A stretch of 50,816 nucleotides of DNA from a virus. Positions 14,235 to 32,089 of this stretch are shown in pieces; position 1 is the first letter of the stretch, and the number at the start of each line of letters is the position of its first letter. The stretch is taken from the IMG/VR virus record IMGVR_UViG_3300003823_000003, positions 1 through 50,816 of that record. One strand, written 5' to 3'. The notes under the pieces were generated by a model. It had not been told where the DNA came from, did not search any database, and worked only from the letters and a program-made list of their open reading frames with translations. The position numbers and the translations under genes were made by a program.

Positions 14235-14247
14235 TTAATTCAAACCC

Positions 14248-16286: not shown

Positions 16287-16354
16287 GGGTTAAGCTTTCT
16301 CGCTGATTGAGCTGCGGAGCAGTCGGCCTTGGGCTGCGTCGGACCGGACGACGG

Positions 16355-16804: not shown

Positions 16805-16808
16805 GCGG

Positions 16809-17804: not shown

Positions 17805-18256
17805 ATCTTGTCGACCCAAGCCTTCATGGATTGCTCATAAAGGGATGTGTCGATGAAGCTAGGCCGGCGCGCCCCGCGTCCCTTTTTGAAGCGCTTGGAT
17901 CGGCCTTCCAACGCCGCCTTTGTCGGGATGGGGCTGATGCCCCGCGTTCCGCCCGCCAGGCCTGAAAGATACTCGATCTCGCGATCTTCAAGAAAGCTGT
18001 GAAAGCGCTTTTCGATCTTATCGGCGCCGCCGTTGAAGATGTCCGCTGGGTCAACCGATTGGCCCATCAGCATGGTCTCAAGCGAACCCTTGAGGCTTTC
18101 CGTCAGATCGTCAGCGATCTCTTGGCTGTGGGCCTCGTAAAAGATGCCCATGACGCTGTATTTCTCTTCGAGGATCTCTGCGACCTCGCCTGTGGTCGTG
18201 CCTTCCTTACTGTCGGCGTAAGGGATTTCCAACACGCCAAGGTGCAAGGTCGTCAA
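17801..18256 (-). CDS. Head-tail joining protein, gp10-like candidate
   Basis: The start is taken as the TTG that overlaps the upstream stop (TTGA), giving MTTLHLGVLEIPYAD and 151 residues; a TTG four codons earlier lies inside the previous gene. The protein is charged and helical (TGEVAEILEEKYSVMGIFYE, EIADDLTESLKGSLETMLMG) and ends with a basic tract (RSKRFKKGRGARR) plus SLYEQSMKAWVDKI, a pattern seen in the HK97 gp10-like neck family. The neighbours are the adaptor-like 166-residue protein and the terminator candidate. The function is inferred mainly from order. Confidence 0.6.
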   Translation of the reverse strand: MTTLHLGVLEIPYADSKEGTTTGEVAEILEEKYSVMGIFYEAHSQEIADDLTESLKGSLETMLMGQSVDPADIFNGGADKIEKRFHSFLEDREIEYLSGLAGGTRGISPIPTKAALEGRSKRFKKGRGARRPSFIDTSLYEQSMKAWVDKI

Positions 18257-18753
18257 GTGAGGCCCCAAAGAGTGCCGATGCTAGAAGCGATGCCGAGGTA
18301 GGTCTGACCCCAAGGAGTTTTAAGGTTCTGAAGCTGCGCCAGCGTCAGGCCCTTCATCTGGTCCACAACGTCAAGGCTTACGCTTGATCCTTCATCAGAG
18401 GATGAAGCAACAACGCCGCCAGTGAACTTGCCAATGCCAAACTGAATGCGCAGAGCTTGGAAATATCCAACCTGCGCCGGCAGGCCATCAGCAACCGGAT
18501 TTGGGACCAAAGGAGCGCCATAGATGTCCTGCGCAAAATTGATGACGCGGTCGGCAGCAAGGTTGTAAACCGCCAGGGTGTACATCAAAGGGGCGTTTGG
18601 ATAGGGGGCAGTCTGCAGCTGCAAATTGACCGTCGCGATAGCGACGTTGTAGGCGTCAGATAGAAAGGTGGAGTTGGTCGGCAGGTTGGCGGTTGGGATT
18701 GAGGTCGCGGTGTAAAACCACGTTGTGAAATCGGCTAGCGTTGGGCCACCCAT
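18253..18753 (-). CDS. Head-tail adaptor / connector protein
   Basis: The 166-residue protein has a helical pattern typical of gp6-like adaptors. It opens with a FTTWFYTATSIPTANLPT segment, then FLSDAYNVAIATVNLQLQ, a YTLAVYNLAADRVINFAQ helix, and an end MKGLTLAQLQNLKTPWGQTY. It follows the capsid genes and a 190-residue accessory protein, and overlaps the next neck gene by four bases. It should bind the portal and extend the connector. Its start region overlaps a possible small membrane protein in another frame. Confidence 0.7.
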   Translation of the reverse strand: MGGPTLADFTTWFYTATSIPTANLPTNSTFLSDAYNVAIATVNLQLQTAPYPNAPLMYTLAVYNLAADRVINFAQDIYGAPLVPNPVADGLPAQVGYFQALRIQFGIGKFTGGVVASSSDEGSSVSLDVVDQMKGLTLAQLQNLKTPWGQTYLGIASSIGTLWGLT

Positions 18754-18868
18754 CGTCCATCGCCTCGCGCACTACCATTACAACCAAGCAAATAAAAACC
18801 CAAAGAAAAAGCGAGATGAGGCCGCCAATCAGAAGCCCCTCACTGAAGCCTCTATCTCGCTTTTCCAT
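18656..18868 (-). CDS. Possible small single-span membrane protein
   Basis: A 70-residue frame starts five bases after the stop of the upstream gene, behind an AGGGG tract. Its first 35 residues lie outside any other gene. They encode MEKRDRGFSEGLLIGGLISL followed by a hydrophobic stretch (FLWVFICLVVMVV), a clear transmembrane segment with a positively charged N-terminus. The second half overlaps the adaptor gene by about 100 bases and is probably not constrained. Filling an otherwise empty 120-base gap, it may be a real accessory membrane protein (a holin-like role is possible but there is no lysis partner nearby). Confidence 0.5.
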   Translation of the reverse strand: MEKRDRGFSEGLLIGGLISLFLWVFICLVVMVVREAMDDGWPNASRFHNVVLHRDLNPNRQPADQLHLSI

Positions 18869-18873
18869 CGCCC

Positions 18874-19446
18874 CTAGGCCGCCTTACGCGGCCTGCCCCT
18901 CACGCGTTGAGCTGGCTGGTTGGCCGGCGGCGGCCCGTTAATGCCGTCCGTGCGAACATGATAGCCCTCGGCAATGGCCTTTTCGTCAGCCTCCGAGACC
19001 TCTTCCTGCTCATACTCAACTGTGAATGACTTCGGTTGCTCTTGCGCAACGTTTTCGACCATGTTGTTGAGCGCGATCGCCGCCTTTTCACGCCGTTCAC
19101 GGCCCTCTTGGACCTTGATGCCGGAGTTGTAGTTGTGCACGCGCAAAATCTGGTCCGCGGTCACAGGCTTGTCGATCGAGTATAAGAAGGTGACGAGCGT
19201 TTTTTGACGGCCGATGTCTTGCACCGGAAGCGCGCCATAGGGCTCAATCTGTTGAATGATCTCGGAAATCGAGCCGGGGTCAAGGTTCAACCCACCGACA
19301 GGCCGCTGTTGTCCCCGAGGAATGTCGGTGAAGTTGTAGGCAGCGCGGAGCGCGCGAGTGTCACCTTGGCCATCAGGATTGAAGGTCAAGCGGTAACAGA
19401 CGCGCTGCTCCTGCCTAGTCACATTAGCTACGAATAGCTTACCCAT
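18874..19446 (-). CDS. Post-capsid accessory protein with AT-hook-like tail
   Basis: This 190-residue protein immediately follows the major capsid gene. The first part (KLFVANVTRQEQRVCYRLTF, RALRAAYNFTDIPRGQQ) is beta-rich. The middle (QIEPYGALPVQDIGRQKTLV) is a mixed domain, then come a charged helix (EGRERREKAAIALNNMVENV) and an acidic stretch. The last ten residues RVRGRPRKAA contain an RGRP core like an AT-hook, so DNA contact inside the head or at packaging is conceivable. I do not recognise the family. It is probably a head or neck protein. Confidence 0.65.
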   Translation of the reverse strand: MGKLFVANVTRQEQRVCYRLTFNPDGQGDTRALRAAYNFTDIPRGQQRPVGGLNLDPGSISEIIQQIEPYGALPVQDIGRQKTLVTFLYSIDKPVTADQILRVHNYNSGIKVQEGRERREKAAIALNNMVENVAQEQPKSFTVEYEQEEVSEADEKAIAEGYHVRTDGINGPPPANQPAQRVRGRPRKAA

Positions 19447-19481
19447 TGTTGAAGATCCTTGCTGCTAAGGACAGTTGAAAA

Positions 19482-20504
19482 TCAGGGATACGGAATGCTG
19501 ATCAACGTGATCGCGGTCGGGCGCACCGGCCAGCCCGAGGTCACGCGCCACTCGGTCAGGAAGTCAGTGGCGCCACCAGCCATCGGGCTCATGATCTCGC
19601 GCGGGGCTGCCATGTCAGCGTACTGCGTGAAGTTGACCGGCGAGCCTGGGGTAAGGTCGGCAAACACGTTGGTGTTGGTCGGGCCGCGGCCCTCTGGCTT
19701 TGCCAGCTCCGGCATGATCAAGATGACCATGTCAGTGCCGCCTGAGCCCGCGCCGATGAGGGTGTCGTCATAGGCCCAGGTGAGCTTGTCCTTGTTCTTC
19801 ATAAGGACTTGCTCAAGGGTCTGCGCCGTGGACGCAGTACCAGCGCCCTCACGTTGGAACTGCGTGAGCTGAACGACGTTGTACTCAAACAGGCCGAGCG
19901 TGCGCTGCGGGCCGAGGATCGTGAACTCCCGCCCAATACCCATTTGAAGGGTGCGGGTCTTGAGCTGCTGGATTTGCTGCATCAAGAAGAACGCCATGGC
20001 GCCGTTGTCGTAGCTGGTTGCCGTAGTGTTGCCGTTGGGGTCCGGAGGAAGGATGACTGCCGTTGCACCTTGGGCGTTGATGAGGCCTTCGCCGTTTTGA
20101 GGGTTCATGCCCTTCAGCGCAGCGTCACGAGCCAGCTGGTTGTGGCCCTGACGCAAGCCAAGGCGATAGGCCTCAACCGCCGAAAAGCCCCAACGATTGG
20201 CCGCCGCGACGTCGTGGTGGTCGAACGCCGCCCGCGCCTTAAAGAGATAGGTCGGCGTGTTCAGCATTTGGGTGCTGATGTCGACGGTCGGCAGCTCATT
20301 GGGGCTGGCCGCGCCGGCAAGCATCCGCGTGCGGAGGTTGATCTGCTTCATGTAAACGAAGAGATCATCCTCAGCGATCTTGACGCGGAGCGCCTTGCCC
20401 GCAAGCGTGTCAGTGAAGCCCGAGGCTTGCGAGTACTGAACAAGAAATTCAGGCTCGATAAAGGCCGGGTTGGTGATGACGTAGGCCGAGAGCTGAAGTG
20501 CCAT
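19482..20504 (-). CDS. Major capsid protein (DUF2184-like, HK97 fold)
   Basis: The chosen start, ATG giving MALQLSAYVITNPAFIEPEF, sits behind a strong AGGAGACT site. An in-frame start 36 codons earlier would run back into the cement gene. The 340-residue protein has the expected size, the order protease-scaffold-cement-capsid, and segments typical of this capsid class: IAEDDLFVYMKQINLRTRML, ISTQMLNTPTYLFKARAAFD, WGFSAVEAYRLGLRQGHNQL, MGIGREFTILGPQRTLG, and a final FLTEWRVTSGWPVRPTAITL strand. It should form the icosahedral shell after scaffold-directed assembly and proteolytic maturation. Confidence 0.85.
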   Translation of the reverse strand: MALQLSAYVITNPAFIEPEFLVQYSQASGFTDTLAGKALRVKIAEDDLFVYMKQINLRTRMLAGAASPNELPTVDISTQMLNTPTYLFKARAAFDHHDVAAANRWGFSAVEAYRLGLRQGHNQLARDAALKGMNPQNGEGLINAQGATAVILPPDPNGNTTATSYDNGAMAFFLMQQIQQLKTRTLQMGIGREFTILGPQRTLGLFEYNVVQLTQFQREGAGTASTAQTLEQVLMKNKDKLTWAYDDTLIGAGSGGTDMVILIMPELAKPEGRGPTNTNVFADLTPGSPVNFTQYADMAAPREIMSPMAGGATDFLTEWRVTSGWPVRPTAITLISIPYP

Positions 20505-20565
20505 TTTTATGAGTCTCCTAAGAGGACAAGGTTGAGTTGCCCTCTCGGGCGGGGTTGATGGGGCG

Positions 20566-21684
20566 TTAGATCTGAACCAGAGCGGCTGAACCCGCAAAGT
20601 TCCAGGTGGCAAAACCAGTCGAGGACGAATAGTTGACCGTCTTGCTGTTGCCGATGGCGAAGCGAAGAATGCTTACGTTTGGCAGCGCCGTACCGGTGGT
20701 GAAGGTGCCGGTAGACGACGTGATGGTCAGCGAAAGGCCCGTCGTGGTCTGGTAAGCGAGCGTGGTGCCGGTGGTGCCCGCGACAGCAGTGAAGGTGCCG
20801 TTGATGGCCGCCGTGCCGCCCGTACCGGTGACGGTCACCGAGGCGATGGTGAACGAGTCACCGACGCTGATGCCCGGCGCGGAGGCGAGGGTCAGGACGA
20901 CGAGGCCCGAGTTGAGCGTACCACCCGTGATCGTCATCGTCAGGCCGGTCGAGACGTAGAAGCTGACCGTGGCGCCCGAGGTCGTCGCCACCGCCGTTTT
21001 GGTGCCGTTGATCTGAGCGAAAGAGCCCGTGCCCGTGGCGCCAGAGATGGTGAAGGTGTTGCCGGGGACAAGGTGGCTGGCGGCCGACAGCGTCAGGACG
21101 ACGAGGCCGGTCGTGGAATTGTAGGTGCCGGACGAGATGGTCAGCGCGCCGTCATAGGTGCCGGAGCTGACGTTAATTGAGCCGGTGCTGGGGATGAGCT
21201 GCTGATTGACGAGGTCCCAGCCGACAGGCGAAGAGATCGCCGTGCCTTCAAGCGAGGCAAGGAGCGGGTCGCACTGCAGCCAGATCCGCGCGCCAGAGCC
21301 GAGGCGGTAGCTCATCACCTGACCATAGGAGCCGATGGTCGGTACAGGGCTCTGCGGGCTGGTGATCATGCCATAGGCTTGGTCAAACACCGAAAAGCCA
21401 GCGATGGGGTAAGAACCACCGGTAACGGTCGTCGCACGACCCATGATGGGGCCAAGCGAATCGTTGGGGTTCGACGCCAGACCAGGGATGGCCTCATAGA
21501 GCGCCACGCCGCCCCACATTGGCAAGGTCTCGTTGATCGAGAGAATGCCAGACCGAAGCGCGAAACGGGTTGCCGGGTCCGACTCAGCCGTCCCCTGCGT
21601 GCCGCCGTAAGAGGTTGCGCCGTCAAAGAGCCCTTGGCCGACGGTCGTGATGTAGGGGTTGGAATATGCCGGGTTGGTAGCCAC
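20566..21684 (-). CDS. Capsid cement / decoration protein with Ig-like repeats
   Basis: The GTG start behind GGAG gives MATNPAYSNPYITTVGQGLF and 372 residues. The first half carries the elements of capsid cement proteins encoded before the capsid gene (SGILSINETLPMWGGVALYE, YRLGSGARIWLQCDPLLASL, ISSPVGWDLVNQQL). Residues from about 170 to 345 contain at least two related Thr/Gly-rich beta repeats of the form GLVVLTLxxAxxxxxGxxFTI...INGTxTAVAxTxGxT, which look like Ig-like surface modules inserted before the closing segment (ILRFAIGNSKTVNY). It probably stabilises the head and displays the Ig-like repeats outward. Confidence 0.75.
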   Translation of the reverse strand: MATNPAYSNPYITTVGQGLFDGATSYGGTQGTAESDPATRFALRSGILSINETLPMWGGVALYEAIPGLASNPNDSLGPIMGRATTVTGGSYPIAGFSVFDQAYGMITSPQSPVPTIGSYGQVMSYRLGSGARIWLQCDPLLASLEGTAISSPVGWDLVNQQLIPSTGSINVSSGTYDGALTISSGTYNSTTGLVVLTLSAASHLVPGNTFTISGATGTGSFAQINGTKTAVATTSGATVSFYVSTGLTMTITGGTLNSGLVVLTLASAPGISVGDSFTIASVTVTGTGGTAAINGTFTAVAGTTGTTLAYQTTTGLSLTITSSTGTFTTGTALPNVSILRFAIGNSKTVNYSSSTGFATWNFAGSAALVQI

Positions 21685-21776
21685 TGTTGATCTCCAGAGT
21701 AAAGGTGAGGGCGGGTTTCAGCGCCTAGAGGGTTAAGGTTGCAAGACGGAAACCCGCTCTTGCCTTTTGTGCGCAG

Positions 21777-22628
21777 TTAGACGCCGAGGAACTCGGTCAC
21801 AAACTGACGTTGCGGGCCGGCGAAGCCGTCCATCCAAGCGGAAGGCGTGCCGTCAAAGGTGTTGATGACGTGGCCGTGCTCGTTGCGCGTACGCATGCGC
21901 AACTGACCAGGCGGTAGAACCGCCGGGCTGTTGGCCGCAGTGAGGGCGTCCGCATAGATCTGCTTTTCGATGACTGAGAAAGCGACCTCGTCATGGATGG
22001 CCATCAGATTGGCGTCTTTGGCGCCGGGGCTGTGAGCCTTGAGCTTGTTGGCCACGCGCCGACGATAGGCCGGGACGGTTTCGTTGCGCATCGGGATTGG
22101 CGCAGAATCACCAAACGCCTGGAAGATGCTGTCGGCCTTGGCTTGCGCGTCGGCCATCTCTTCGGCGTCGGCTTCCTTCATGGACTTGGGCAGCTCCTTT
22201 TCGAGGGCGTCAATCTTGGCCTTCAGCTCCTTACGCTCTTCCTTTTCAGCGTCGCGACGAGCCTTGTCAGCCTTGCGCTCTTCCTCTTCAGCGTCGCGCT
22301 TGGCCTTGTCCATCATCTCTTCTTCGTCCTCGTCTTTCCGCTTCTTGTCGGCGGCGACGCGCTTGGGCTTGCCTTCTTCAAGGCTGTCAGGACCTTGGTC
22401 CTCTTCCTTGCCTTCGTCCTTTTTGGCGCGCTCTTCCTCTTCTGTCTCAGCGTCGCGCTTGGCCTTGTCGGCCTTTTTCTTTTCTTCCTCTTCAGCGTCG
22501 CGCTTTGACTTTTCGGCAGCCTCAAGCGCGTCGAGACGCGCGTTGAACTTGCCGAGGGCGTCGAGGATGGTGTTCTTCAGCTCAGCGTCGGCCTTGGCGG
22601 CGTCTTCGCGTTCGTCTTTCTCGGCCAT
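21777..22628 (-). CDS. Capsid scaffolding protein
   Basis: The 283-residue product is extraordinarily charged. From about residue 38 to 150 it is made of repeated KRDAEEEE / KAKRDAE / KKADKA blocks predicted to form long coiled coils. The part after about residue 150 is a globular tail (PIPMRNETVPAYRRRVANKL, VIEKQIYADALTAANSPAVL, GQLRMRTRNEHGHVI). It lies between the prohead protease and the cement and capsid genes, the normal scaffold place. The scaffold should nucleate procapsid assembly and be removed by the protease. The repeats also create long antisense frames that are not genes. Confidence 0.8.
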   Translation of the reverse strand: MAEKDEREDAAKADAELKNTILDALGKFNARLDALEAAEKSKRDAEEEEKKKADKAKRDAETEEEERAKKDEGKEEDQGPDSLEEGKPKRVAADKKRKDEDEEEMMDKAKRDAEEEERKADKARRDAEKEERKELKAKIDALEKELPKSMKEADAEEMADAQAKADSIFQAFGDSAPIPMRNETVPAYRRRVANKLKAHSPGAKDANLMAIHDEVAFSVIEKQIYADALTAANSPAVLPPGQLRMRTRNEHGHVINTFDGTPSAWMDGFAGPQRQFVTEFLGV

Positions 22629-22634
22629 GACTGA

Positions 22635-23726
22635 TTAGGCTCCTATAAGGGTTTTGCGGATTGCAAGGGTTGTTAGGCGGGTGTTGGTGGCATCAAGCCG
22701 GGCGGCAAGATCTTGAAGAAAAGGTTTTTGGCTGTCGGCTCGGGTTTCGTCGTCCACGCCCGAACGATCCACGCCCACCGGGTCACCGAGCTTGTCCCAA
22801 ACGCCCGCACCCTTATTGGGGAGGATGGCGATGTGGTCCAGCAGCGCCGGCACGCCCTCAATGAGCAGGGTCTTGCCGTCCTCCAGCGTCATCTTGGTGT
22901 TGGCGGCAGGGTCACGAAAGACGACGGTAGGCGAGGTTGAGGCCTCTTCCTCAAACAAGACCTTGTTCATCGCGGCGTCATAGACCTTGGCAATGCCCCA
23001 CACGTCCTGGCCCTTGATGTAGGCCAGCATGATCGAGCCTACTACGCGGTTGCCGAACTCCTCTGAGCTCATGGTCGCGCCGGGCGGGTGCTCCCAAATG
23101 ACGCTGAGGCCATTGCACCGCTGACAAAACTCCTCGGTGAGGTAGTTCTCAGGCTTACGGAAAACGAACTCTTGGAGCGCCTGCCGGTAGGCGACGCCTG
23201 TTGAGGTGATGCGAATGTTCCACAGGTGAACGTTTTCATAGACTTGCGGGCTGGTCAGCTCGCCTGCGGCCATCATGCGGGCAATGTCTAGCTCGTTGGC
23301 CGTCAAGCGCGCCAGCGCGATCCTTGCGCCGGGGTGAAGCGGCTCAGGCGGATAGGCTAGCTTTGCCCAACTCCAGCCGACGTGCTCGTCGCACTGGTGC
23401 GGGGTGAAGGGCTCCTTGACCTTGACAAGGTAGGTGGAGAAGTCGACGTCTTCAGACTGGATCGGTTGTTGTGAGACAGGGTCTGTGGGCGGGGGTTCTT
23501 CGGCCTTGACGATCGTTCGGGCCAGCAGGGTCGCTTGACCAGGCTTAACGGTCACGCCCGTCTCTTCCTCGCACTCGCGAATGGCGCACTCCTCAAGCGT
23601 CTCGCCGTCTTCCTGTTGACCCCCGCATGGCGCCCATTGCAAAGCGTGATCAGAGCCAGGGCCACGGCGCAGGAACAGCGCCTCCTTGTCAGGCGTGATG
23701 AAGAGGATGCCGGCGGCGCGGATCAT
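22635..23726 (-). CDS. NUDIX hydrolase fused to DUF2213-like prohead protease
   Basis: Residues 1 to about 140 are a NUDIX domain with a perfect GX5EX7REUXEEXGU box at residues 36-58 (G36, E42, R50-E51, E54-E55, G57). Residues from about 145 onward (LDIARMMAAGELTSPQVYEN, ITSTGVAYRQALQEF, LSVIWEHPPGATMSSEEFGN, RVVGSIMLAYIKGQDVWGIA) resemble the DUF2213 phage protease family, and the gene precedes the scaffold as a prohead protease should. The likely main role is cleavage of scaffold and capsid during maturation. The NUDIX part should hydrolyse a nucleoside diphosphate derivative. Why the two activities are joined is unclear. Confidence 0.82.
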   Translation of the reverse strand: MIRAAGILFITPDKEALFLRRGPGSDHALQWAPCGGQQEDGETLEECAIRECEEETGVTVKPGQATLLARTIVKAEEPPPTDPVSQQPIQSEDVDFSTYLVKVKEPFTPHQCDEHVGWSWAKLAYPPEPLHPGARIALARLTANELDIARMMAAGELTSPQVYENVHLWNIRITSTGVAYRQALQEFVFRKPENYLTEEFCQRCNGLSVIWEHPPGATMSSEEFGNRVVGSIMLAYIKGQDVWGIAKVYDAAMNKVLFEEEASTSPTVVFRDPAANTKMTLEDGKTLLIEGVPALLDHIAILPNKGAGVWDKLGDPVGVDRSGVDDETRADSQKPFLQDLAARLDATNTRLTTLAIRKTLIGA

Positions 23727-23728
23727 TG

Positions 23729-24268
23729 TTATTTTGGAAACTTCTTTGCTGCAACTTCTTTTAGAGCTTCAACTGCCTCTTTTGGAATGGTTGCGCCTTT
23801 TGCCTCTTTAATAGCCCGGGCGCATTGATCTCCAAACCATTTTGCAGCCTCAGGAGAAAGAGCTTCAGCATCCTTCTTCGCCCAAGCCGCATCAGCCTTG
23901 CGGTTCTCGATGGCGTCCATGCGCTCGTTGAGCGCGTCACACATCTTGGCAATGTCGGCCATGGTGCAGTCTTTGGCGGAATCTTTCTTTGAACGCCGGC
24001 TTGACAGACGTTGGTGGCGCTCAAAGCCGCGCATTACAGCGTCATATTCTTTAGGGGACACGCCTGCGCGCTCTAACTCACGCACGACTTCCTTTTCAGA
24101 ATAGCCCTCTTCGCCCATGTCGAAGCCGTCGGATTCGCTCCAACCAGCATCCGCCCGATCTTTCCCCACGAACTCCCTCCCGACTTTCTGGCTGACGCCG
24201 CCATAGCCGCCAGGCGTGTGGGCCGCGGCTTCCATCAATCTGTGCTGAGCCGGCGAAGTTGTCGGCAT
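23729..24268 (-). CDS. Phage protein with N-terminal AAH/VGREF motif, function unknown
   Basis: The 179-residue protein begins PTTSPAQHRLMEAAAHTPGG, then GVSQKVGREFVGKDRA, a short motif found at the start of many phage proteins encoded near the capsid genes. The middle is acidic (ESDGFDMGEEGYSEKEVVRE) and the C-terminal part is a helical, Ala/Lys-rich tail. The codon use at the C-terminal end is somewhat AT-richer than that of its neighbours. The function is not known; a head-assembly or internal head role is inferred from the neighbourhood. Confidence 0.65.
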   Translation of the reverse strand: MPTTSPAQHRLMEAAAHTPGGYGGVSQKVGREFVGKDRADAGWSESDGFDMGEEGYSEKEVVRELERAGVSPKEYDAVMRGFERHQRLSSRRSKKDSAKDCTMADIAKMCDALNERMDAIENRKADAAWAKKDAEALSPEAAKWFGDQCARAIKEAKGATIPKEAVEALKEVAAKKFPK

Positions 24269-24456
24269 TAAGCCTTAGCCTTCTTGGCGCGCTTGGAGGG
24301 CGGGGTGAGCGTGGTCACCTTGGCGTCGGTTTCGGCCTTACGCGGCGGGACGGGCGGGCGAACGGCCTCTGGTGCAGGTTGAGGCGCGACCTTGATCTCG
24401 ACCGGCTTGGGCAGGCCAAGGCCAACGTAGTCGCGGATCTTATCAAAGAGCTTCAT
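24268..24456 (-). CDS. Small Pro/Lys-rich protein
   Basis: This 62-residue protein starts within a TAATG junction with the stop of the upstream gene and ends in the same way with the next gene, so it is embedded in the translated operon. It has a short amphipathic start (MKLFDKIRDYVGLGL), a proline-rich middle (APQPAPEAVRPPVPPR) and a basic tail (SKRAKKAKA). No family is recognised. It may be an internal head or DNA-contacting peptide. Confidence 0.6.
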   Translation of the reverse strand: MKLFDKIRDYVGLGLPKPVEIKVAPQPAPEAVRPPVPPRKAETDAKVTTLTPPSKRAKKAKA

Positions 24457-26324
24457 TAGGACATGGCCTCCTGAGCGATGATCGACGCGCCGACCGTATT
24501 AGAGCCAAAGGTAGAAGGCGTTGTGATGGCGACCGTCAACAGGTCAGGCGCGGTGCCTTGAACGTTGTTGTAGAGCGGAAAGAAGTTGCTCAAGTCAAAG
24601 TTCTGCAACCCGCCAGACGGCAACGGCGTATTGTAGACCACCTCGCCGCCGGCCAAGGCTGTGGCTGACACGTCGCGCTCCACGAAGCTGTTCAACGAGC
24701 CAAGTGAGTACATGGTCGCAAACGACGCGCCAGTCAGCGAGATCGGCGATTGGTAGGTCGAGGCGATTAGCTCAAGCGTGCAGTTAGCGCTGGAGTAAAT
24801 GTTTAGCGACTTAGGCAAAATTTGCCCACGGTCAATAACGCCAAGGATGTAGTTGCCGCCCGCCGCCGGGGGAACGGCCATGGGGCCGGAAACCAAGACG
24901 TTGTCGACGACCGTCAGCGCGCTGGTCGTGTTGGCGGTGATGCGGCCGATTGAGCCTTGGCCCGTTTGATAGGTCGCAGAGGTCAGCGTGACCGTACCGG
25001 AGGCCGAGGTGGCAAAGGTGAACTGGTTAGCCGCCGGGATCGAGGTGATCAAAACCTGCGTGGGAAATGGACCGCCAGTCGCGGGCGAGGCTCCGTTGAG
25101 CGTGACCCACCGGCCAGGTTGAAGGTAGTGGTTGGCCGCGGTTGTAGTGACCGTCGCCACGCTGGAGGTGATAGAGCAGGCCGAGATGCCCGCCGTCGCG
25201 CCACGGCTGAAAAGGTACTTGCCCACCCAAGCGCCGGCCACGAGCGGCGTGCCGGTCAGGTTGACCGTGGTCGCGGACGCCGACTGTGTGACCGATGAGA
25301 TCGCCGCCCCGCCGGCAGGCAGCACGCCGTTTGCGCCCGAATAAGCGGAGTCCACGCCATACTCCAGCGTGCCCATGTTGCGGTAGCGAATGCTCAGCAA
25401 AGGGTAACGCGTGGCCGAGGCGCCAGGGGCGCGGGTCGGCGTGCCCGCCGCCATGCCATAGCCGTAAGTAAAGCCGCGCTGATCGTCGATCTTGCCCTTG
25501 GCCAGGACCGAGACGCCGTAGTGGGTCATGGAGCCAGCGGTCGAAGGGCCGATGTTGCGCAGCTCGTAGCGGACAGGCAGGTTGCCAGTGCGCGCCCAAG
25601 CAACCTGTTGGTTGGTCAGGTTGCCAATGCCGACGCTGTGCAGCACGTAAGGCTCGCCGCCGATCATCACGCCCCAACGGAGCATGCCAGCCCCGTACCA
25701 GGCGAACTCGATCCACCACATCTGAATTTGGTTGACCGAGAAAGTGCCGACCGCCGGGTTGGTGCCCTTCCAGACGTTTTGAGGGTCAGACCAAGTGCAA
25801 GAGCTGTTTTGCGGCCCTGCATAGATGCGGTTTTCAAACACCCCGCCGCCGCCAGCGTCGGAACGGTAAACGACCGCCATGCCCGTTGGGTTTTGGGGCG
25901 TGGGGTCGCCTTGTTCAAAAAAGATGCCGTTGCCGTCGTCAAAGAAGCCAAGACGTTGACGCTGGTTGAAGTAGGCTTGACCAAACAAAAGGCCCGAGGC
26001 GAGGTAGAGCGTCTTGCCGGGCTGGTAACGAATGTAGGGGCGGGTTTGGCGGATGGCGAGGTCGCCGCTGGCCGACGAGACCGAAAGCAACACGCCACCG
26101 AGCGAGGAAGAGGCGGCCACAGCACCAGCGCCCGAGGTGTAGGCTTCCCAACGCATGGGCTGGGGGCCGTACTCAAAGTCCGCCTCAAAAAGGTTCTGGA
26201 CCTCAGAGACCTCCAGCTTGCCTACGTTGTCACGCAGCCGTTGAGGCATCGCCACTTGCGACGAGTTGTCGGCCAGGAGGCGATACTTGGCGGTGTCAAG
26301 CGTGTTGATCGGGTTCTGAGGCAT
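24456..26324 (-). CDS. Large virion structural protein
   Basis: The start is set at the ATG that overlaps the upstream TGA (TGATG); an adjacent TTG is the other option. The 622-residue protein has a recurrent phage structural pattern: QRLRDNVGKLEVSEVQNLFE, then FGQAYFNQRQRLGFFDDGNG, VFENRIYAGPQNSSCTWSD, and FTYGYGMAAGTPT. This resembles large proteins encoded in the head cluster of several phages whose role is not established. A beta insert at about residues 380-452 (VATVTTTAANHYLQPGRWVT ... NQFTFATS) resembles the inserts in sheath and gpJ. It could form a head fibre or whisker. Confidence 0.7.
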   Translation of the reverse strand: MPQNPINTLDTAKYRLLADNSSQVAMPQRLRDNVGKLEVSEVQNLFEADFEYGPQPMRWEAYTSGAGAVAASSSLGGVLLSVSSASGDLAIRQTRPYIRYQPGKTLYLASGLLFGQAYFNQRQRLGFFDDGNGIFFEQGDPTPQNPTGMAVVYRSDAGGGGVFENRIYAGPQNSSCTWSDPQNVWKGTNPAVGTFSVNQIQMWWIEFAWYGAGMLRWGVMIGGEPYVLHSVGIGNLTNQQVAWARTGNLPVRYELRNIGPSTAGSMTHYGVSVLAKGKIDDQRGFTYGYGMAAGTPTRAPGASATRYPLLSIRYRNMGTLEYGVDSAYSGANGVLPAGGAAISSVTQSASATTVNLTGTPLVAGAWVGKYLFSRGATAGISACSITSSVATVTTTAANHYLQPGRWVTLNGASPATGGPFPTQVLITSIPAANQFTFATSASGTVTLTSATYQTGQGSIGRITANTTSALTVVDNVLVSGPMAVPPAAGGNYILGVIDRGQILPKSLNIYSSANCTLELIASTYQSPISLTGASFATMYSLGSLNSFVERDVSATALAGGEVVYNTPLPSGGLQNFDLSNFFPLYNNVQGTAPDLLTVAITTPSTFGSNTVGASIIAQEAMS

Positions 26325-27160
26325 CAAAGCTCCTCTAATTTTCTACGGGCCTCGGCCAGCTCGGCGCGGCCCTTTTCAGTCATGCATTCGTCAGGGACGT
26401 CACGCAGGTTATAGACATAGGTTGCCTTGCAACGGCAAAAGATCTCTTCGCCCACGTGCGTGATGTCGTCGTAGTAGTCGTTCGGGCCTTTTTTCATCAA
26501 GCCGCGCTTGATGGCCCAGTTGTCCTTGTAGGCGAAAAAGTGCTGGTCGCGCGCCTTGTGGTCCGGGCGATAGTTGTAGCCTGCCTGGCGCCAGGCTGAA
26601 TGCCAGATCACGCCCAGAGCGTTGCCGCCCTCCGCGATGGTCTCGTTGATGTTGGCTGTGAGCTTTGAGGCTTGGTCGATGTGCAGCCGGCGCTCCTCAT
26701 AGGGGAGCTGCGCCAGGCTTTTGCGGATCTGCTGCTTGGTCTCTACCTTGTCAATGTCCGTTGCGCCACCAGCCGGGATGCTGGTCGCCCAGCCCGAAAA
26801 GCGCTGAAGCGTCTTTTCAATCGCCTGTTGGCGGTTAAGCTTGATCAGGTCAGCGCTGGCCATGATCCGTCGGTCGAGCGCCGCCTTTAAAGACGGCCGC
26901 AAGCGATCAAGCGTAAACCGACCAACGCCCTTATGAAACTTAAGCGCGCCGCCTTGCTCAACCATGCGCTTGTAGGTACCAGCGAGCGCGTCGCGTAAGT
27001 CTTGCTCCATCTGAGCCGCAGACCTGAACGAGCGCTCAGCCGCCTCGCGCAACTTGCGCTGCCAGTAAAGCACCTGTTCTGCCGAAACGAAGCCGCTCTC
27101 TGACATGGCCTTGACGGCGTCAGTCAGGACCGAGAAATAGTCGTCCCTATTTTCGGCCAT
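26324..27160 (-). CDS. Phage head morphogenesis / minor head protein (gpF-like)
   Basis: The 278-residue protein is helical in its first two-thirds (ALAGTYKRMVEQGGALKFHK, RQQAIEKTLQRFSGWA). It ends with the gpF/SPP1 gp7-like signature: a WHSAWRQAGYNYRPDHKARD segment, followed by THVGEEIFCRCKATYVYNL, where the closely spaced Cys residues resemble the NCRC motif of the family. It follows the portal gene as in most head clusters. The role is probably in procapsid assembly and DNA ejection at the portal vertex. Confidence 0.85.
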   Translation of the reverse strand: MAENRDDYFSVLTDAVKAMSESGFVSAEQVLYWQRKLREAAERSFRSAAQMEQDLRDALAGTYKRMVEQGGALKFHKGVGRFTLDRLRPSLKAALDRRIMASADLIKLNRQQAIEKTLQRFSGWATSIPAGGATDIDKVETKQQIRKSLAQLPYEERRLHIDQASKLTANINETIAEGGNALGVIWHSAWRQAGYNYRPDHKARDQHFFAYKDNWAIKRGLMKKGPNDYYDDITHVGEEIFCRCKATYVYNLRDVPDECMTEKGRAELAEARRKLEEL

Positions 27161-27371
27161 CGTACCCTGCTTTGGCCGCCAACCTGTAGCCCTTCGCCAA
27201 GAGGTCTAGGCTCACTTCCACGCGCCCGACAATCTCGGTTTGAATGGCGGCAGCCAAGGTCCACTCTTGGCAGTTCAGAGCCTTGTGGTAGTCAACATGG
27301 GCGAGCGTTGCAGCTCGCATAGCAGCCTCAGCCAGCTGAAATTGCTGGTCGATTTCCGCGCTGACCGTCAA
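27147..27371 (-). CDS. Small helical head-cluster protein
   Basis: The 74-residue frame begins at a TTG overlapping the portal stop (TTGA) and overlaps the start of the minor head gene by 14 bases. It is almost entirely alpha-helical (QLAEAAMRAATLAHVDYHKA, LDLLAKGYRLAAKAGYDGRK). No family is recognised. Position and coupling support that it is translated. It could be a small portal-associated or assembly factor. Confidence 0.6.
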   Translation of the reverse strand: MTVSAEIDQQFQLAEAAMRAATLAHVDYHKALNCQEWTLAAAIQTEIVGRVEVSLDLLAKGYRLAAKAGYDGRK

Positions 27372-28834
27372 GCCAGGACCCTCAACGCCTCGCGAAGGCG
27401 CTGTGAATCTTGGGCCGCGAACGGCTTGCCAGGTTTGGGCTCTTCTAGGCCTTCGCCCATGGTTTGAGTTGGCGGTTCGTAGCTTACCAAGGCCTCGACG
27501 TCGATCAGCAAGGATGACGGGAAAAGCAGCTTGTCGCTGTTAATGTTATCTGCAATCCACTGAACGATGTTGGCCTTGTTTTCCGGGTCGGCGATCGGCA
27601 ACAGAACTTCAGCAACCGCAATCATGGCCTTAAGCTTGACATCGCTAACAGCGATCTTGTCGCTGTCGGGCTCCTCGATCAGGCTCGGCCATTCAGCCGC
27701 AAAGGAATTTTGCGCGTCGTAGAAGAACTGCCGATAAGAGGCTGGTAGCTTGTCTTTGTAGTCCGCCTTCAGCGTTTCATAAAACTGCTTGTTCCAGGCC
27801 CGATACTGACAGACCTTGGTCATGAAGTCATAGAGCGGCGTCATCCAAATGCGGAGCCGCTGAATGTATTGCGCAATGCGCTTGGCGTCCTCAGTCCCCT
27901 CGCCGAAGCCCTCGGCCATGGTTTCTGAGTTGATAATCTGCGCGGGCGTGCCGGCGGCGCTGGCGATGTTCTCAAGGATGTTCTTGCGAGCTTCTTTGAA
28001 AGCGCCGTCGATGTTTTGAAGGTTCAGCGATTCAATCGCGTCTTCATGACCGATCTGAAGAACGTTGCCCGTCGCACCTTGCTGAAGCAAAATGCGCTTG
28101 ACCGCCCCGACCGCGGCCATCAGGCCATCGACGATGGACGAGGTTTGCTTGATCTTGGTCACCAGCAGGCCTGCCTTGTAGGCGACCATGTCGTCAGTGA
28201 CCAAAGTGTTGATGTAGCTTTTCAACGGAAACAGAGCGCGCAGGTAAACGCTGCGGCCAACGTAGCCGAATGACGTTGAGGTAAACGACAGGTAGACCGG
28301 GTCCTCGTGCATCAGGGTAACCGCCCTGGAACGATGAACCGGCTTGCCGGCGATGGTGATGCCTTGCACCTTAAGGAAGTCGATGGACGCTGGGTTTTGG
28401 TCTAAGACCAGCGAGCCGGCAGTGTTCAGCGGGTCGAGAACGTTAAAGCCAATTTTGGCGCCGGCCAGCGCCTCAAAGTTGACGGGCCGGTCGTTAGGCG
28501 TGCCCTCGACCAACAACGCCAGCGAAGCGACGCCGTAGATACGCGCGAGGCGCGCGGTGTTGAAGATCACGCGGTCAGCGCCCAGCGCTTTCCATTCATC
28601 CTCAAAGGCCTCGCGCAGCCGGTCCTCGGGGCCTTTTTGAATGCTGATCTTGCGGTCTTGCGACTGAGCGACCGCGAGGGGAGAGTCAACGATCTTGGCG
28701 CCAAGCGGGTGATAGAGGTAAATGGTCTTGGCGGTCTGGTAGCTGACATCATCGCCAGGCTGCAGGTCTGGCGCCATCAAGATGTCTTGAAGCGCGTTGC
28801 CTAGCGCCGTGCCTGTGACGGAGGTTTCAGCCAT
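27368..28834 (-). CDS. Portal protein (DUF1073-like)
   Basis: At 488 residues, after the large terminase gene, this has the pattern of anti-Mu/DUF1073-type portals. It begins with a DILMAPDLQPGDDVSYQTAK segment and a ARLARIYGVASLALLVEGT region. A KIGFNVLDPLN strand, a VYLSFTSTSFGYVGRSVYLR segment, a SIVDGLMAAVGAVKRILLQQ helix, and ASAAGTPAQIINSETMAEGF with a GEGTEDAKRIAQYIQRLR helix follow. The portal forms the dodecameric DNA gate and docks the terminase. Confidence 0.88.
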   Translation of the reverse strand: MAETSVTGTALGNALQDILMAPDLQPGDDVSYQTAKTIYLYHPLGAKIVDSPLAVAQSQDRKISIQKGPEDRLREAFEDEWKALGADRVIFNTARLARIYGVASLALLVEGTPNDRPVNFEALAGAKIGFNVLDPLNTAGSLVLDQNPASIDFLKVQGITIAGKPVHRSRAVTLMHEDPVYLSFTSTSFGYVGRSVYLRALFPLKSYINTLVTDDMVAYKAGLLVTKIKQTSSIVDGLMAAVGAVKRILLQQGATGNVLQIGHEDAIESLNLQNIDGAFKEARKNILENIASAAGTPAQIINSETMAEGFGEGTEDAKRIAQYIQRLRIWMTPLYDFMTKVCQYRAWNKQFYETLKADYKDKLPASYRQFFYDAQNSFAAEWPSLIEEPDSDKIAVSDVKLKAMIAVAEVLLPIADPENKANIVQWIADNINSDKLLFPSSLLIDVEALVSYEPPTQTMGEGLEEPKPGKPFAAQDSQRLREALRVLA

Positions 28835-28841: not shown

Positions 28842-30155
28842 CTAGAAACCTCCGTTGTTACCCAAGGCTAAGGCGGGGCCGTACGTGTAGCAGTCCAAGA
28901 GGTCATCGGCTCGCTTGGCTGCGTCCTTATCACCGATCCTAAATGAGGTGACCTGGCTTACTAGGTGATTACGCGTGGCGCCCTTGAAAGGAAATGTCTT
29001 TTCATAGGCCCGTTGAGAGAGCTTAATCTCTCCGCGGAAGTGGTAGCCACTTACTGAGATGGCTCGCTCATCCTTGCCAAGGGCTGTTAGCCTTGACTCG
29101 ATGGCCCTTGCCTTCAGGCCGCGGCGCGCGGCCTGTTGAAGCAAGATCTCGCCCGAGGCCTTGTCCTCAATAAAGGCGCCAAGCGACCCATGCCTTGCTC
29201 GGCATGAGGCTGCGTAACCCTCAAGCTTCTCAAGGACCGTTGGCAGCCAAACCTCTAAAAGCGAGCCCTCGATTTGAACCAGCTCATAGTCAAGGATGAC
29301 CAAGGGATAACCCGTCGCCCTTGAGCGCGCCCAGTAGATGACGCCTGTGCCGTCGTTAGCCGAACCTGTCTTTGTGGCCGTGTCTAGCGTACAAAATACC
29401 GCGTCACATAGGGTAGGGTCTTGGACGGGCTGACCGTTGACAAGGAGCTTGTCAAGGTCAAAGAAGGCAACCCCGCTCCAGTCAATAAACTCTGCCTCGT
29501 ACTCTTGCGCAAAGACGAGAGGATGGGTGTCTCGGCGAAGGCGCTCGATCTCTTCGGCAGGGAGGTAGGGGTTTTGGATTGATGGGGCGTGGTATTGGAC
29601 AAAGCCATGCCGCTCTTTTGGATCAAGTTGATCCTCATTGCAGATGCGCCACATGAAGTTTTCAGGGTCAACCCCGTTGGTGTTGCTTAACACCACGCAG
29701 CTGCCAAGGTAATCAAGCAGGGTAGGAAGGATTGACCTGGAGAAGGTGTCCTTCATGTCAGCCGTTGTAAAGGCGGCCTCGTCGATTATGGCTAGGTGAT
29801 ATTTACGGGATCGTCCCGCTCGAGGGTTGTTTAGCGTCCAAAATTCAGCAGAGCCACCACCGTCTAGGCGAATCATGCCCTCAGTCTTAGAGGAGGACTT
29901 TACGACAGGCTCGAGGGTGGTTAGGATCTCAGCATAGGCCTCGGATAAGATGCGATAGTCGGGAGCAAACCAAGCTACACGCTTGCCTTTAATCGTGGCG
30001 TCAGCTAGAAGCACCTTGCCAAGGTCGGTTTTACCCCAGCGTCTTCCGCAACGAATAGCTAGGAAGCGAGGACGGCGCCCGGTCGCGGGGTCCTTAACCT
30101 TGTAGGCTGCTATCTGCCCTGGGTGAAGGGTCGGTAGGTTTATCTCAATGTTCAC
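28842..30155 (-). CDS. terL: Terminase large subunit
   Basis: The GTG start overlaps the small-subunit stop (GTGA). The 437-residue protein has an ATPase domain with Walker A CGRRWGKT (residues 36-43), Walker B LAIIDEAAF (121-129) and the coupling motif VVLSNTNG (154-161). The nuclease domain follows from about residue 250, with Asp in CTLDTATK (about 258), Glu-Asp in AFIEDKASG (about 330-331) and a late RADDLLDCY acidic motif. It powers DNA translocation and cuts concatemers. It lies directly after the small subunit and before the portal. Confidence 0.95.
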   Translation of the reverse strand: MNIEINLPTLHPGQIAAYKVKDPATGRRPRFLAIRCGRRWGKTDLGKVLLADATIKGKRVAWFAPDYRILSEAYAEILTTLEPVVKSSSKTEGMIRLDGGGSAEFWTLNNPRAGRSRKYHLAIIDEAAFTTADMKDTFSRSILPTLLDYLGSCVVLSNTNGVDPENFMWRICNEDQLDPKERHGFVQYHAPSIQNPYLPAEEIERLRRDTHPLVFAQEYEAEFIDWSGVAFFDLDKLLVNGQPVQDPTLCDAVFCTLDTATKTGSANDGTGVIYWARSRATGYPLVILDYELVQIEGSLLEVWLPTVLEKLEGYAASCRARHGSLGAFIEDKASGEILLQQAARRGLKARAIESRLTALGKDERAISVSGYHFRGEIKLSQRAYEKTFPFKGATRNHLVSQVTSFRIGDKDAAKRADDLLDCYTYGPALALGNNGGF

Positions 30156-30592
30156 TCTGAGTCAGGAAGACCGCCAACAATGACCACCTTTGTTGGTGAG
30201 TCGTCCTTTTCCTCTTTCTTTTCGCCCATCTTTGTGGGCATCATCTTACCAAGCGCCCACATCTTGGCGTGAAGCATAAGACGGTCGCGAGCTACCGAAG
30301 TTCCGGAGTCCTCAAAGGCCTCTCCACGGTGTTTTCCTTCGGAAATGTCTTCCGCTTCTCGTACAGTATTCTCTACAATTCTTGCAATCGCAAGGGAATA
30401 TCTGCTGAGAAGGGCTGTATCTTCCTCGTTTTCTTTGAACTTGTCGATGTAGTAAAGAACTAAAGCTCTGGGATAACCTATCTTTTGACAGGCCTTCTGT
30501 ACCGAGATATTTTCGCTTTCTAAGACATCGGAAAGCATCGTGATAATCTCACGAGGCGTTCTAAGTTTATTTTCAAACTTAGCGCTTTCCAC
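30152..30592 (-). CDS. terS: Terminase small subunit
   Basis: The 146-residue protein starts at GTG and ends inside the large-subunit start. It has an N-terminal helix-turn-helix-like segment (ISVQKACQKIGYPRALVLYY), a long helical oligomerisation region (YSLAIARIVENTVREAEDIS), and a C-terminal helix-plus-tail ending KKEEKDDSPTKVVIVGGLP, as in small terminases that recognise packaging sites. The AT-richer codon use than in the downstream genes is notable. Identification rests on the domain layout and the adjacent large subunit. Confidence 0.82.
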   Translation of the reverse strand: MESAKFENKLRTPREIITMLSDVLESENISVQKACQKIGYPRALVLYYIDKFKENEEDTALLSRYSLAIARIVENTVREAEDISEGKHRGEAFEDSGTSVARDRLMLHAKMWALGKMMPTKMGEKKEEKDDSPTKVVIVGGLPDSE

Positions 30593-30663
30593 TTTGGGCT
30601 CACTTGCTCTTTAGATTCACGTTACTTCTCGGGGTTGATAAAGGCCGCCCGCCTTCATCTGAT

Positions 30664-30735
30664 GTTGCATAGTCCCTCGGCGGTTTAAGGCTAGGACTGC
30701 TCATGCAACCTAAGACTTCCTATGACGAAGTCTTA
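30664..30735 (-). promoter_or_regulatory. Two-hairpin RNA leader (put-like candidate)
   Basis: On the minus strand, an 8-bp stem (TAAGACTT with AAGTCTTA, 9-base loop) ends at 30711. It is separated by one unpaired G from a second hairpin whose arms are GTTGCAT and ATGCAAC, with an inner AGTCC/GGACT stem and an asymmetric GAGC bulge. The element begins within a few bases of the predicted transcription start and lies before the terminase genes. Two hairpins separated by one base is the known architecture of HK022 put antitermination RNAs. Similar function here is inferred, not shown. Confidence 0.55.
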
Positions 30736-30744
30736 TATAATCCA

Positions 30745-30773
30745 CTTATATCTTAGTATGGCCTAGATGTAAA
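30745..30773 (-). promoter_or_regulatory. sigma70-type promoter for the late (structural) operon
   Basis: The minus strand carries TTTACA, exactly 17 bases, then TATAAG, matching the -35 and -10 consensus in 5 of 6 positions each. The predicted start is near 30738, just before the two-hairpin leader, and about 146 bases ahead of the small terminase start. It lies downstream of the NusG-like gene, so that gene must be expressed from another promoter. Confidence 0.7.
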
Positions 30774-30795
30774 CGACAGTATGGCTTGGCTACTT

Positions 30796-31377
30796 TTAAC
30801 CAAAAGCCCTTATAGGTTCTTCATACTCTACTGACTCATCTCGCACTAAGTCTACATTTCTGACGTTAACTTTTATGGCTCCACCAGCCATGTCAGTCTC
30901 GATCCAATCATTGCCTAAATACAGGCCTTTAATTGAGACCTTACCACTAACGGCTAGCACCCTCTCACCAACAACTAGCCCCTTTGGCCTTTTCTTGTCC
31001 TTTTTCCTACCTCCCCACTCGCCAGCCCTTCTTTCTTCCTCAAACTTTAGTGGCTCAATCAGCTTGGCTATCTTTTCAATCTCACTTAACCCAATAAGCG
31101 CAGGAGCCCCGGCAAACGATACTATCTTTAGGACGTTCTCGACTATTTTAAGAAGGGTTATGTTTGGCGCTGACGTGACTTCAACAAACATATAGCCGTC
31201 AAGCACTGGTTTTCTAACTAAGACTAGCCGATCTCCCTTGATCCTTCTAACTCTTTTTTCAATAGAAAAGCTTGGGCAAACCGCCTCAAAGCCCTCCTCC
31301 CTTAGCCTTTCTAAGGCCTTATTTTCAGCACCACACTTTACCATAAGGATGTAGTAGGCGGATGCTTCGTCAATCAT
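30796..31377 (-). CDS. Phage NusG/RfaH-like transcription factor
   Basis: The 193-residue protein has a NusG N-terminal (NGN) domain at about residues 7-108: AYYILMVKCGAENKALERLR, EGFEAVCPSFSIE, and VRKPVLDGYMFVEV, with the family PGY-like DGYMFV element. A charged linker (EERRAGEWGGRKKDKKRPK) follows, then a KOW-like segment at about 132-175 (GLVVGERVLAVSGKVSIKGL). NGN domains bind RNA polymerase and suppress pausing. It stands upstream of the 30-kb structural operon and its promoter, so it may be a dedicated antiterminator for late transcription. The codon use is AT-rich compared with the structural genes. It could also act on host genes. Confidence 0.82.
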   Translation of the reverse strand: MIDEASAYYILMVKCGAENKALERLREEGFEAVCPSFSIEKRVRRIKGDRLVLVRKPVLDGYMFVEVTSAPNITLLKIVENVLKIVSFAGAPALIGLSEIEKIAKLIEPLKFEEERRAGEWGGRKKDKKRPKGLVVGERVLAVSGKVSIKGLYLGNDWIETDMAGGAIKVNVRNVDLVRDESVEYEEPIRAFG

Positions 31378-31557
31378 GTATATCTCACCCGTAAAAGAGC
31401 TCTGATCTCACCAATACTACAAGAATTTGCCAACCCCGTAAAGATCAATAAGATACTAAGAATGAAGTGACCAAGCCATCTCCCTTTACTAACCCCACCC
31501 ATTACCTTCCTGTGTCTGTCCCTAAACCTTCATAACTTTTACCCGTACTATCTTACC

Positions 31558-31712
31558 CAGTGGTCAGACTTATAAGCTCGGCAAACCCTAAGTGGTTGAT
31601 TTGATTGGTCAATTAAACTCTAACTGGTTATTATATTATATTTAGAATAATATATACAGACTAGTTATGTACTTGATTACATTATACATTTTATCGTGTA
31701 GTCTGACCACTG
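31558..31712. repeat. 13-bp perfect inverted repeat around an AT-rich core
   Basis: CAGTGGTCAGACT (31558-31570) is repeated in exact inverse as AGTCTGACCACTG (31700-31712). The 129 bases between are almost entirely A/T and contain further short palindromes. Long perfect arms flanking an easily melted core are a common arrangement at origins or looped operators. Confidence 0.75.
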
Positions 31713-32006
31713 AGTAGAAAGACACACTTTTACCTCCCACCATCAAAAATAATAATAATTATTCTTTCCCCTATAGACTTTAATAGGAATAATAACTATT
31801 ATAATTATCTCCCAGAGTACATTTTACTCTACTCAACAGACACACACCCTGAAAAGGTTTTTTGACTAATAAAATCAATCACTTAGGGCTTTGTCTTAAT
31901 ACCAAAAGTGACCCAGAAAGTGCCCCATAGGTCCGGCTATAGGGCCAATTTTGGCTCAAATATCAAGCTTGGCATTTTACCTAGCTACTTCTAACAAGCA
32001 CTTTTA

Positions 32007-32089
32007 CCAAGCCTATCCAAGCCATGCCAAGCTTATTAGGCTAGGTTAAACCAAGCTATAAAATAACTATAATAAAACCGATGGCTTGG
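32007..32089. repeat. CCAAGC iterons with 10-bp phasing
   Basis: Three tandem 10-bp units, each starting CCAAGC (32007, 32017, 32027), are followed by another CCAAGCT at 32051 and an inverse copy ATGGCTTGG at 32081. The same CCAAGCCAT word also appears at 31471 and, inverted, at 30781. One-turn spacing suggests a protein bound along one face of the helix, such as a repressor or replication initiator. Confidence 0.6.

What the first reader, a model, noticed from the sequence alone, without database searches (positions are those of the whole stretch)
30664..31377. Phage NusG-like factor beside a promoter and a two-hairpin leader
A NusG/RfaH-like gene ends just before a promoter (TTTACA-17-TATAAG) whose transcript would begin with two hairpins separated by one unpaired G. 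That architecture is known from HK022 put RNAs, which make RNA polymerase ignore terminators. The operon it would serve is about 30 kb. A phage using its own NusG paralogue together with an RNA element for late antitermination would be a notable combination.
Basis: partly seen in the sequence, partly recalled or inferred. Interest (0 to 1): 0.7.

Follow-up and report, generated by a model that had tools for sequence, protein, structure and literature searches.

The report
Phage NusG heading the late operon
A freshwater virus of bacteria carries its own copy of a transcription-elongation factor (a NusG/RfaH-like protein) directly in front of its long block of particle-building genes, next to a regulated promoter and a tightly folded leader RNA, and unrelated phages put the same kind of gene in the same place, which suggests an overlooked way for phages to keep transcription going through their late genes.

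Summary
The sequence features are real. A NusG/RfaH-family gene (30796-31377, minus strand) ends 22 bp before a sigma70-like promoter (TTTACA-17-TATAAG). The predicted transcript starts with a very stable leader of three tandem hairpins, not two (-41.4 kcal/mol; third of 2,031 genome windows by z-score). The leader precedes terS-terL-portal and a ~36 kb late operon in a circular 64 kb myovirus.

The put-RNA reading fails. A covariance model built from nine put RNAs scores true put sites at 52-98 bits and does not list the leader even at E 10. Two hairpins one base apart occur in about 3% of windows anyway.

The NusG part is strengthened. NusG-family genes sit just upstream of the terminase genes in four portal-sharing relatives and three cyanophages. 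In one relative an RfaH-like gene is followed by an exact ops-type 12-mer. The promoter and leader are not found between nusG and terS in the relatives.

Most likely the phage NusG paralogue is a processivity factor for the late operon, loaded near its start; recruitment by the leader is possible but untested.

The parts
30796..31377 (-). Phage NusG/RfaH-family gene (193 aa, P0001): N-terminal NGN domain, basic linker (RKKDKKRPK), degenerate KOW-like C-terminal domain
   Evidence: Pfam NusG E 2e-11; PHROG 6386 transcription antiterminator E 4e-13; UpxY/RfaH/LoaP models hit below their cut-offs; RfaH best in PDB by sequence and by fold of a low-confidence model; C-terminal alignment
30781..30789 (-). 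CCAAGCCAT site, 7 bp upstream of the -35 of the late promoter; probable binding site of a regulator
   Evidence: 4 copies in the window against 0.54 expected, none of 100 shuffles with 4; all four in 30781-32089
30745..30773 (-). sigma70-like late promoter TTTACA-17-TATAAG, predicted start near 30738
   Evidence: 10 of 12 consensus matches; one of 7 such sites in the window. Consensus match only
30711..30735 (-). Leader hairpin 1 (9 bp, 7-nt loop)
   Evidence: fold
30664..30709 (-). Leader hairpin 2 (15 bp, interrupted)
   Evidence: fold
30637..30659 (-).
   Evidence: fold; the three-hairpin leader ranks third of 2,031 windows by z
30152..30592 (-). Terminase small subunit (terS), first gene after the leader
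   Evidence: PHROG 1482 E 5e-9; Pfam Sf6_terminase E 7e-7
28842..30155 (-). Terminase large subunit
   Evidence: PHROG 2 E 1e-24; 46% identical to phages such as Pantoea PdC23
27368..28834 (-). Portal protein
   Evidence: PHROG 146 E 3e-49, Pfam Phage_portal_3
844..27371 (-). Rest of the late operon in the window: head, tail sheath, baseplate, lytic tail protein and tail fibre genes, closely packed
   Evidence: ORFs; PHROG hits; gap list
18805..18866 (-). Strong hairpin with U-rich tail inside the late operon, terminator-like; overlaps the start of a possible 70-aa membrane-protein ORF
   Evidence: -35.7 kcal/mol, z -5.34; ORF
31681..31709 (-). Candidate promoter for nusG, TGGTCA-17-TATAAT
   Evidence: 10 of 12 matches
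31554..31716 (.). 17-bp inverted repeat (arms 31554-31570 and 31700-31716) containing TGGTCA, in the divergent control region
32007..32089 (.). Array of CCAAGC sites, three direct repeats at 10-bp pitch (32007, 32017, 32027), then 32051 and 32081(-), upstream of the rightward operon

Best explanation
The region is the head of the late operon of a circularly mapping myovirus. A phage NusG paralogue of the RfaH/UpxY/LoaP kind is made as the first leftward gene. A second leftward promoter, probably controlled by a DNA-binding regulator at CCAAGCCAT, starts the terS-to-tail-fibre transcript with a rigid three-hairpin leader. The NusG paralogue binds the elongating host RNA polymerase through its NGN domain near the start of that transcript, displaces or competes with host NusG, and keeps the polymerase moving (anti-polarity, pause suppression, partial terminator read-through) over about 36 kb. 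Shown by sequence: the NusG family membership, the gene order, the exceptional leader structure, the regulator-type repeats, the length of the operon and its final terminator. Inferred: that the late operon is the target (supported by synteny), that loading happens in the leader region, and all activities of the protein and the RNA.
For: NusG family. Synteny: Pfam NusG hits in portal-sharing relatives fall just upstream of terS in L006, L064, L059 and L128; the L006 and L128 hits are weak in Pfam, but L006 is firm in NCBIfam nusG at E 6e-16. The same order occurs in the unrelated cyanophages MinM1, Nsp-JY10 and yong2. In L059 the RfaH-like gene (TIGR01955, 68 bits) is followed by GGCGGTAGCTTG, the only GGCGGTAGNNTG in 70.5 kb, before terS. 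[quoted passage not shown] Regulated promoter. Structured leader. Operon length and ends. Internal terminator-like hairpin.
Against: No experiment. The leader has no homologue to test covariation. In the relatives nusG abuts or lies within about 100 nt of the next gene, so the promoter and leader between nusG and terS look peculiar to this phage. The leader lacks an intrinsic terminator, an ops element and a UNCG hairpin. Most portal-sharing phages in the set lack any NusG, so the factor is dispensable in the wider group. NusG could act on host genes or on the whole phage genome.
Confidence: 0.55

Rival explanations
1. The leader is an RNA recruitment element for the phage NusG, as the dfn hairpin is for LoaP: NusG binds one of the hairpins in the nascent RNA and is loaded onto the polymerase.
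For: Position at the start of the transcript, exceptional stability, NusG gene next door, basic linker in the protein. Precedent: LoaP needs a small RNA hairpin in the dfn leader (PMC12691694).
Against: No UNCG hairpin and no leader terminator as in dfn; LoaP model 27 bits against a cut-off of 125. Not conserved in relatives.
Confidence: 0.25
2. The leader is a put-type RNA that modifies RNA polymerase without any protein.
For: Like HK022 putL, two hairpins separated by one G starting at about +4 of the transcript (PMC9378689).
Against: None of the put consensus is present; the put covariance model does not match. The layout is found in about 3% of random windows. Put serves early operons in HK022.
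Confidence: 0.05
3. The hairpins are an ordinary 5' structure that protects the late mRNA from nucleases or insulates terS translation, and NusG acts independently of them.
For: 5'-terminal hairpins are a well-known mRNA stabiliser (general knowledge). Relatives with nusG lack the leader, so the two need not be linked.
Against: Three tandem hairpins in 106 nt are more than a 5' cap needs; no direct test.
Confidence: 0.35
4. The phage NusG paralogue is a general or host-directed factor (for example competing with host NusG and thereby blocking Rho across the cell) and its place beside terS reflects timing only.
For: NusG-type proteins act genome-wide in hosts; the protein is below every subfamily cut-off.
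Against: Repeated placement immediately before the terminase genes in unrelated phages favours a late-operon target.
Confidence: 0.25

Closest known systems
LoaP and the dfn leader hairpin (Bacillus velezensis)
   Same: NusG paralogue next to a very long operon, with hairpin RNA at the start of the transcript; LoaP antiterminates through an RNA hairpin (PMC12691694)
   Different: Phage late operon; LoaP model score far below cut-off; no UNCG hairpin or leader terminator found here
RfaH and the ops element
   Same: Best PDB matches of the NGN domain by sequence and fold are RfaH; RfaH suppresses polarity of long operons
   Different: Below the RfaH equivalog cut-off (29 of 144.5 bits); no ops in the leader and no GGCGGTAGNNTG in the whole phage genome
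UpxY / TaA type NusG paralogues
   Same: Best NCBIfam hit is UpxY; gene adjacent to the operon it is thought to serve (PMC7819879)
   Different: 35 of 100 bits needed; serves capsule or antibiotic operons, not phage late genes
HK022 put RNA
   Same: Two hairpins split by one unpaired G at the very start of a transcript
   Different: No put sequence or model match; third hairpin present; late rather than early operon
PHROG 6386 phage 'transcription antiterminator'
   Same: P0001 and three of the four relatives' NusG proteins match it
   Different: A family label without a stated mechanism; no paper on such phage proteins was found in the library searched

Membership tests
NusG/RfaH (NGN-domain) superfamily | NGN domain | tested here: met
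   Pfam PF02357 44.7 bits, cut-off 22.2
NusG/RfaH (NGN-domain) superfamily | C-terminal KOW domain | tested here: inconclusive
   No Pfam KOW hit; alignment suggests a shortened KOW-like barrel; model confidence too low there
RfaH (TIGR01955) | Score over the equivalog cut-off | tested here: not met
   29.4 of 144.5 bits
RfaH (TIGR01955) | ops element (GGCGGTAGNNTG) in the target leader | tested here: not met
   None in the leader or the phage genome
LoaP (NF033641) | Score over cut-off | tested here: not met
   26.7 of 125 bits
LoaP (NF033641) | UNCG-type hairpin and an intrinsic terminator in the leader | tested here: not met
   Loops are GUCAUAG, an 8-nt loop and GGGCG; no terminator-like site in the leader
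LoaP (NF033641) | Specific binding to leader RNA | not testable with these tools
   Needs binding assay
UpxY (NF033644) | Score over cut-off | tested here: not met
   35 of 100 bits
HK022 put RNA | Conserved put sequence and two-stem structure | tested here: not met
   Model R1 from nine puts: leader absent from hits at E 10 with filters off; HK022 putL 97.6, putR 52.4, PdC23 64.3 bits, all three being among the nine training sequences
HK022 put RNA | Protein-free read-through via the RNA polymerase beta' zinc-binding domain | not testable with these tools
   Needs in vitro transcription; host polymerase unknown
Any Rfam RNA family | Match at gathering score | tested here: not met
   None in the window; only chance-level hits in the leader at E up to 10

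The most novel reading that the evidence does not exclude
A phage-encoded NusG paralogue is loaded onto RNA polymerase by a multi-hairpin nascent RNA at the head of the late operon, a protein-plus-RNA late antitermination system distinct from lambda Q, N-nut, put and RfaH-ops; more widely, phages of several lineages have independently placed NusG paralogues before their terminase genes as late-gene processivity factors, some using ops-like DNA and some using structured RNA.
Probability: 0.22. Interest if true: 0.75.

Novelty: new variant of a known kind. Interest (0 to 1): 0.52.

Why it matters
Phage late operons are tens of kilobases long, and the textbook ways to transcribe them are Q-type antiterminators or phage polymerases. 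A NusG paralogue at the head of the terminase-to-tail operon, repeated in unrelated phages, would add a third way. It would show that specialised NusG factors are phage tools as well as capsule and antibiotic regulators, bearing on where RfaH and LoaP came from. The relative with an RfaH-like gene followed by an ops-type element makes the idea directly testable with E. coli components.

Tried and rejected
Put RNA membership: rejected by model search. Two-hairpin layout as evidence in itself: rejected, about 3% of windows. Known RNA families: none. Covariation of the leader: could not be tested; P0001, TerL and portal searches in viral contigs found only the same virus with this leader, and a pattern scan for hairpin 1 found 16 other contigs with no further similarity to the leader or to NusG. 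Structured leader in relatives' nusG-terS gaps: none clearly (best z -1.5 to -2.4 in the cyanophage gaps, +0.5 in L059). ops in the window: absent. ops in L058: two hits; the one inspected lies antisense within a coding gene and is taken as chance. boxA-like TGCTCTTTA at 30604-30612 is on the opposite strand to the late transcript, so not used. Structure prediction of P0001: mean pLDDT 37.5 alone and 44.0 with four relatives, so only the NGN part is usable. Literature: no open-access paper was found describing phage NusG paralogues in late control; the library is not complete.

Full report
What the window is. The window is 50,816 bases of a virus record. A second IMG/VR contig of 64,192 bases (IMGVR_UViG_3300006116_000001) is 100% identical over the region compared, and its ends fall inside the window, so the genome is circular or circularly permuted, about 64.08 kb with a 110-bp terminal repeat (the lengths are arithmetic on those coordinates). 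It encodes a tail sheath, baseplate, capsid, portal and terminase on the minus strand and DNA polymerase, helicase, primase, thymidylate synthase and dCMP deaminase among the remaining genes: a myovirus, with no host identified.

The observation. P0001 (30796-31377, minus) matches Pfam NusG at 44.7 bits (cut-off 22.2) and PHROG 6386 'transcription antiterminator'. TTTACA-17-TATAAG lies at 30773-30745; only seven sites in the whole window reach 10 of 12 matches, and three of them are in the 1.4 kb control region 30745-32160. Minimum energy is -41.4 kcal/mol against -25.1 +/- 3.4 for shuffles (z -4.85). In a scan of 2,031 windows of the same length on both strands it ranks third by z. The comparison slightly favours the leader because its frame was chosen from the predicted start.

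Is it a put RNA? HK022 putL and putR were located in NC_002166, relatives were collected from other phages and nine were aligned. They share long invariant blocks such as GAACG, GTCGG, GGCGG and CAATG. A covariance model from them scores putL at 97.6 bits, putR at 52.4 and the Pantoea phage PdC23 copy at 64.3 bits (all three are training sequences). In the window, with all filters off and E up to 10, 19 chance-level hits appear and none is the leader. By sequence it is not a member of the put family. A functional analogue with a different sequence cannot be excluded, but nothing supports it beyond the shape.

The control region. CCAAGCCAT occurs four times in the window (0.54 expected; none of 100 shuffles had four) and all four lie between 30781 and 32089: 7 bp upstream of the -35 of the late promoter, once at 31471, and in an array at 32007-32089 before the rightward operon, where three CCAAGC units follow each other at 10-bp pitch. 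One further copy lies in a coding region elsewhere in the genome. This looks like the binding site of a regulator shared by the leftward and rightward promoters, and it is independent support that the promoter at 30745-30773 is a real control element. nusG itself probably starts from TGGTCA-17-TATAAT at 31709-31681. The area also holds a 17-bp inverted repeat at 31554/31700.

The operon. Downstream of the leader come terS, terL, portal and closely packed structural genes; the 203-nt nusG-terS gap is by far the largest among them. Following the minus strand through the rest of the genome, the run ends at a 13-bp stem followed by TTTTTTGTTT at L028 11673-11644, about 36.4 kb from the leader. Within it, 18805-18866 forms a long stem with a U-rich tail (-35.7 kcal/mol, z -5.34) just after the head genes, with no good promoter behind it. 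If it terminates, distal tail genes would need read-through. It overlaps the start of a possible 70-aa membrane protein, so this remains a lead.

Comparative evidence. P0001 has no close homologue in 50,697 phage records or in IMG/VR apart from the same virus. Portal-based searches gave about 90 related viral loci and 13 genome loci. Pfam NusG was sought in 68 of the viral records: four had a hit, and in all four it lies just upstream of the terminase genes. These are L064 (gap to the next gene, the presumed terS, 15 nt), L059 (99 nt to a 127-aa ORF, then terS), L006 (2 nt, partial gene at the contig edge) and L128 (overlapping; Pfam hit below cut-off). The only weak tblastn matches in named phages, Nostoc phage Nsp-JY10, Microcystis phage yong2 and Synechococcus phage MinM1, also have the gene before terS or terL (for yong2 across the record ends). 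Thus every phage NusG gene examined sits at the entrance of the packaging and structural genes. It remains a minority trait: most portal-sharing phages have none, and many of the records are fragments.

Cis elements differ. In L006, L064 and L128 there is no room for a promoter and leader between nusG and the next gene, and the gaps in L059 and the cyanophages hold no comparable structure. L059 has an RfaH-like protein (TIGR01955 68 bits over its full length) followed by GGCGGTAGCTTG at 5344-5355, the only GGCGGTAGNNTG in 70.5 kb. One such match falling by chance in that 99-nt gap on the right strand has a probability of about 7e-4 (arithmetic). Chance matches do exist elsewhere: one of two in L058 is antisense in a coding gene. 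The window phage has no such motif in its whole genome.

Mechanism. Specialised NusG paralogues increase expression of long operons, several are encoded beside their targets, and they are recruited by DNA (RfaH-ops) or an RNA hairpin (LoaP-dfn) in the leader (PMC7819879; PMC12691694). By anatomy the best-supported reading is that P0001 does this for the late operon. Steps shown: family, gene order, exceptional leader structure, operon extent. Steps inferred: target, recruitment site, activity. The link between leader and protein is the weakest step, because the leader cannot be tested by covariation and is not found between nusG and terS in the relatives. P0001 also has a basic linker and a degenerate KOW-like domain, compatible with RNA binding but no evidence for it.

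Verdict. Observation confirmed and enlarged (third hairpin, regulator repeats, full operon). Interpretation partly supported: NusG at the late operon yes, put-like RNA no, protein-plus-RNA antitermination open. A protein-plus-RNA NusG system is not unprecedented (LoaP), so this is a new variant of a known kind; what is new is its use by phages for late genes, for which no description was found in the open-access library searched.

Noticed in passing
L059:4793-5355: Phage contig IMGVR_UViG_3300050120_000170: RfaH-like gene followed after 65 nt by the exact ops-type 12-mer GGCGGTAGCTTG, then terS; a possible phage RfaH-ops pair for late genes.
   Followed up: partly
window 18805-18866 (-): Very stable hairpin with U-rich tail in the late operon after the head genes, terminator-like, overlapping the start of a 70-aa membrane-protein ORF.
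   Followed up: partly
window 32007-32089: Three CCAAGC direct repeats at 10-bp pitch plus two more sites, a likely operator array before the rightward operon.
   Followed up: partly
L064:1800-1895: Giant near-perfect palindrome (hairpin z about -9) upstream of the nusG gene in this relative.
   Followed up: no
L040:55-142: Pantoea phage PdC23, whose terminase and portal resemble those of the window phage, carries a put-family RNA (64 bits) in an unannotated stretch.
   Followed up: partly
L149:3890-4519; L033:4890-5528; L034:4803-5468: Cyanophages MinM1, Nsp-JY10 and yong2 also have NusG-family genes just before their terminase genes; in MinM1 it is annotated only as hypothetical.
   Followed up: yes
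window 31554-31891: Two nested inverted repeats (17 bp and 37 bp arms) in the AT-rich divergent region; possible operator or replication origin.
   Followed up: no
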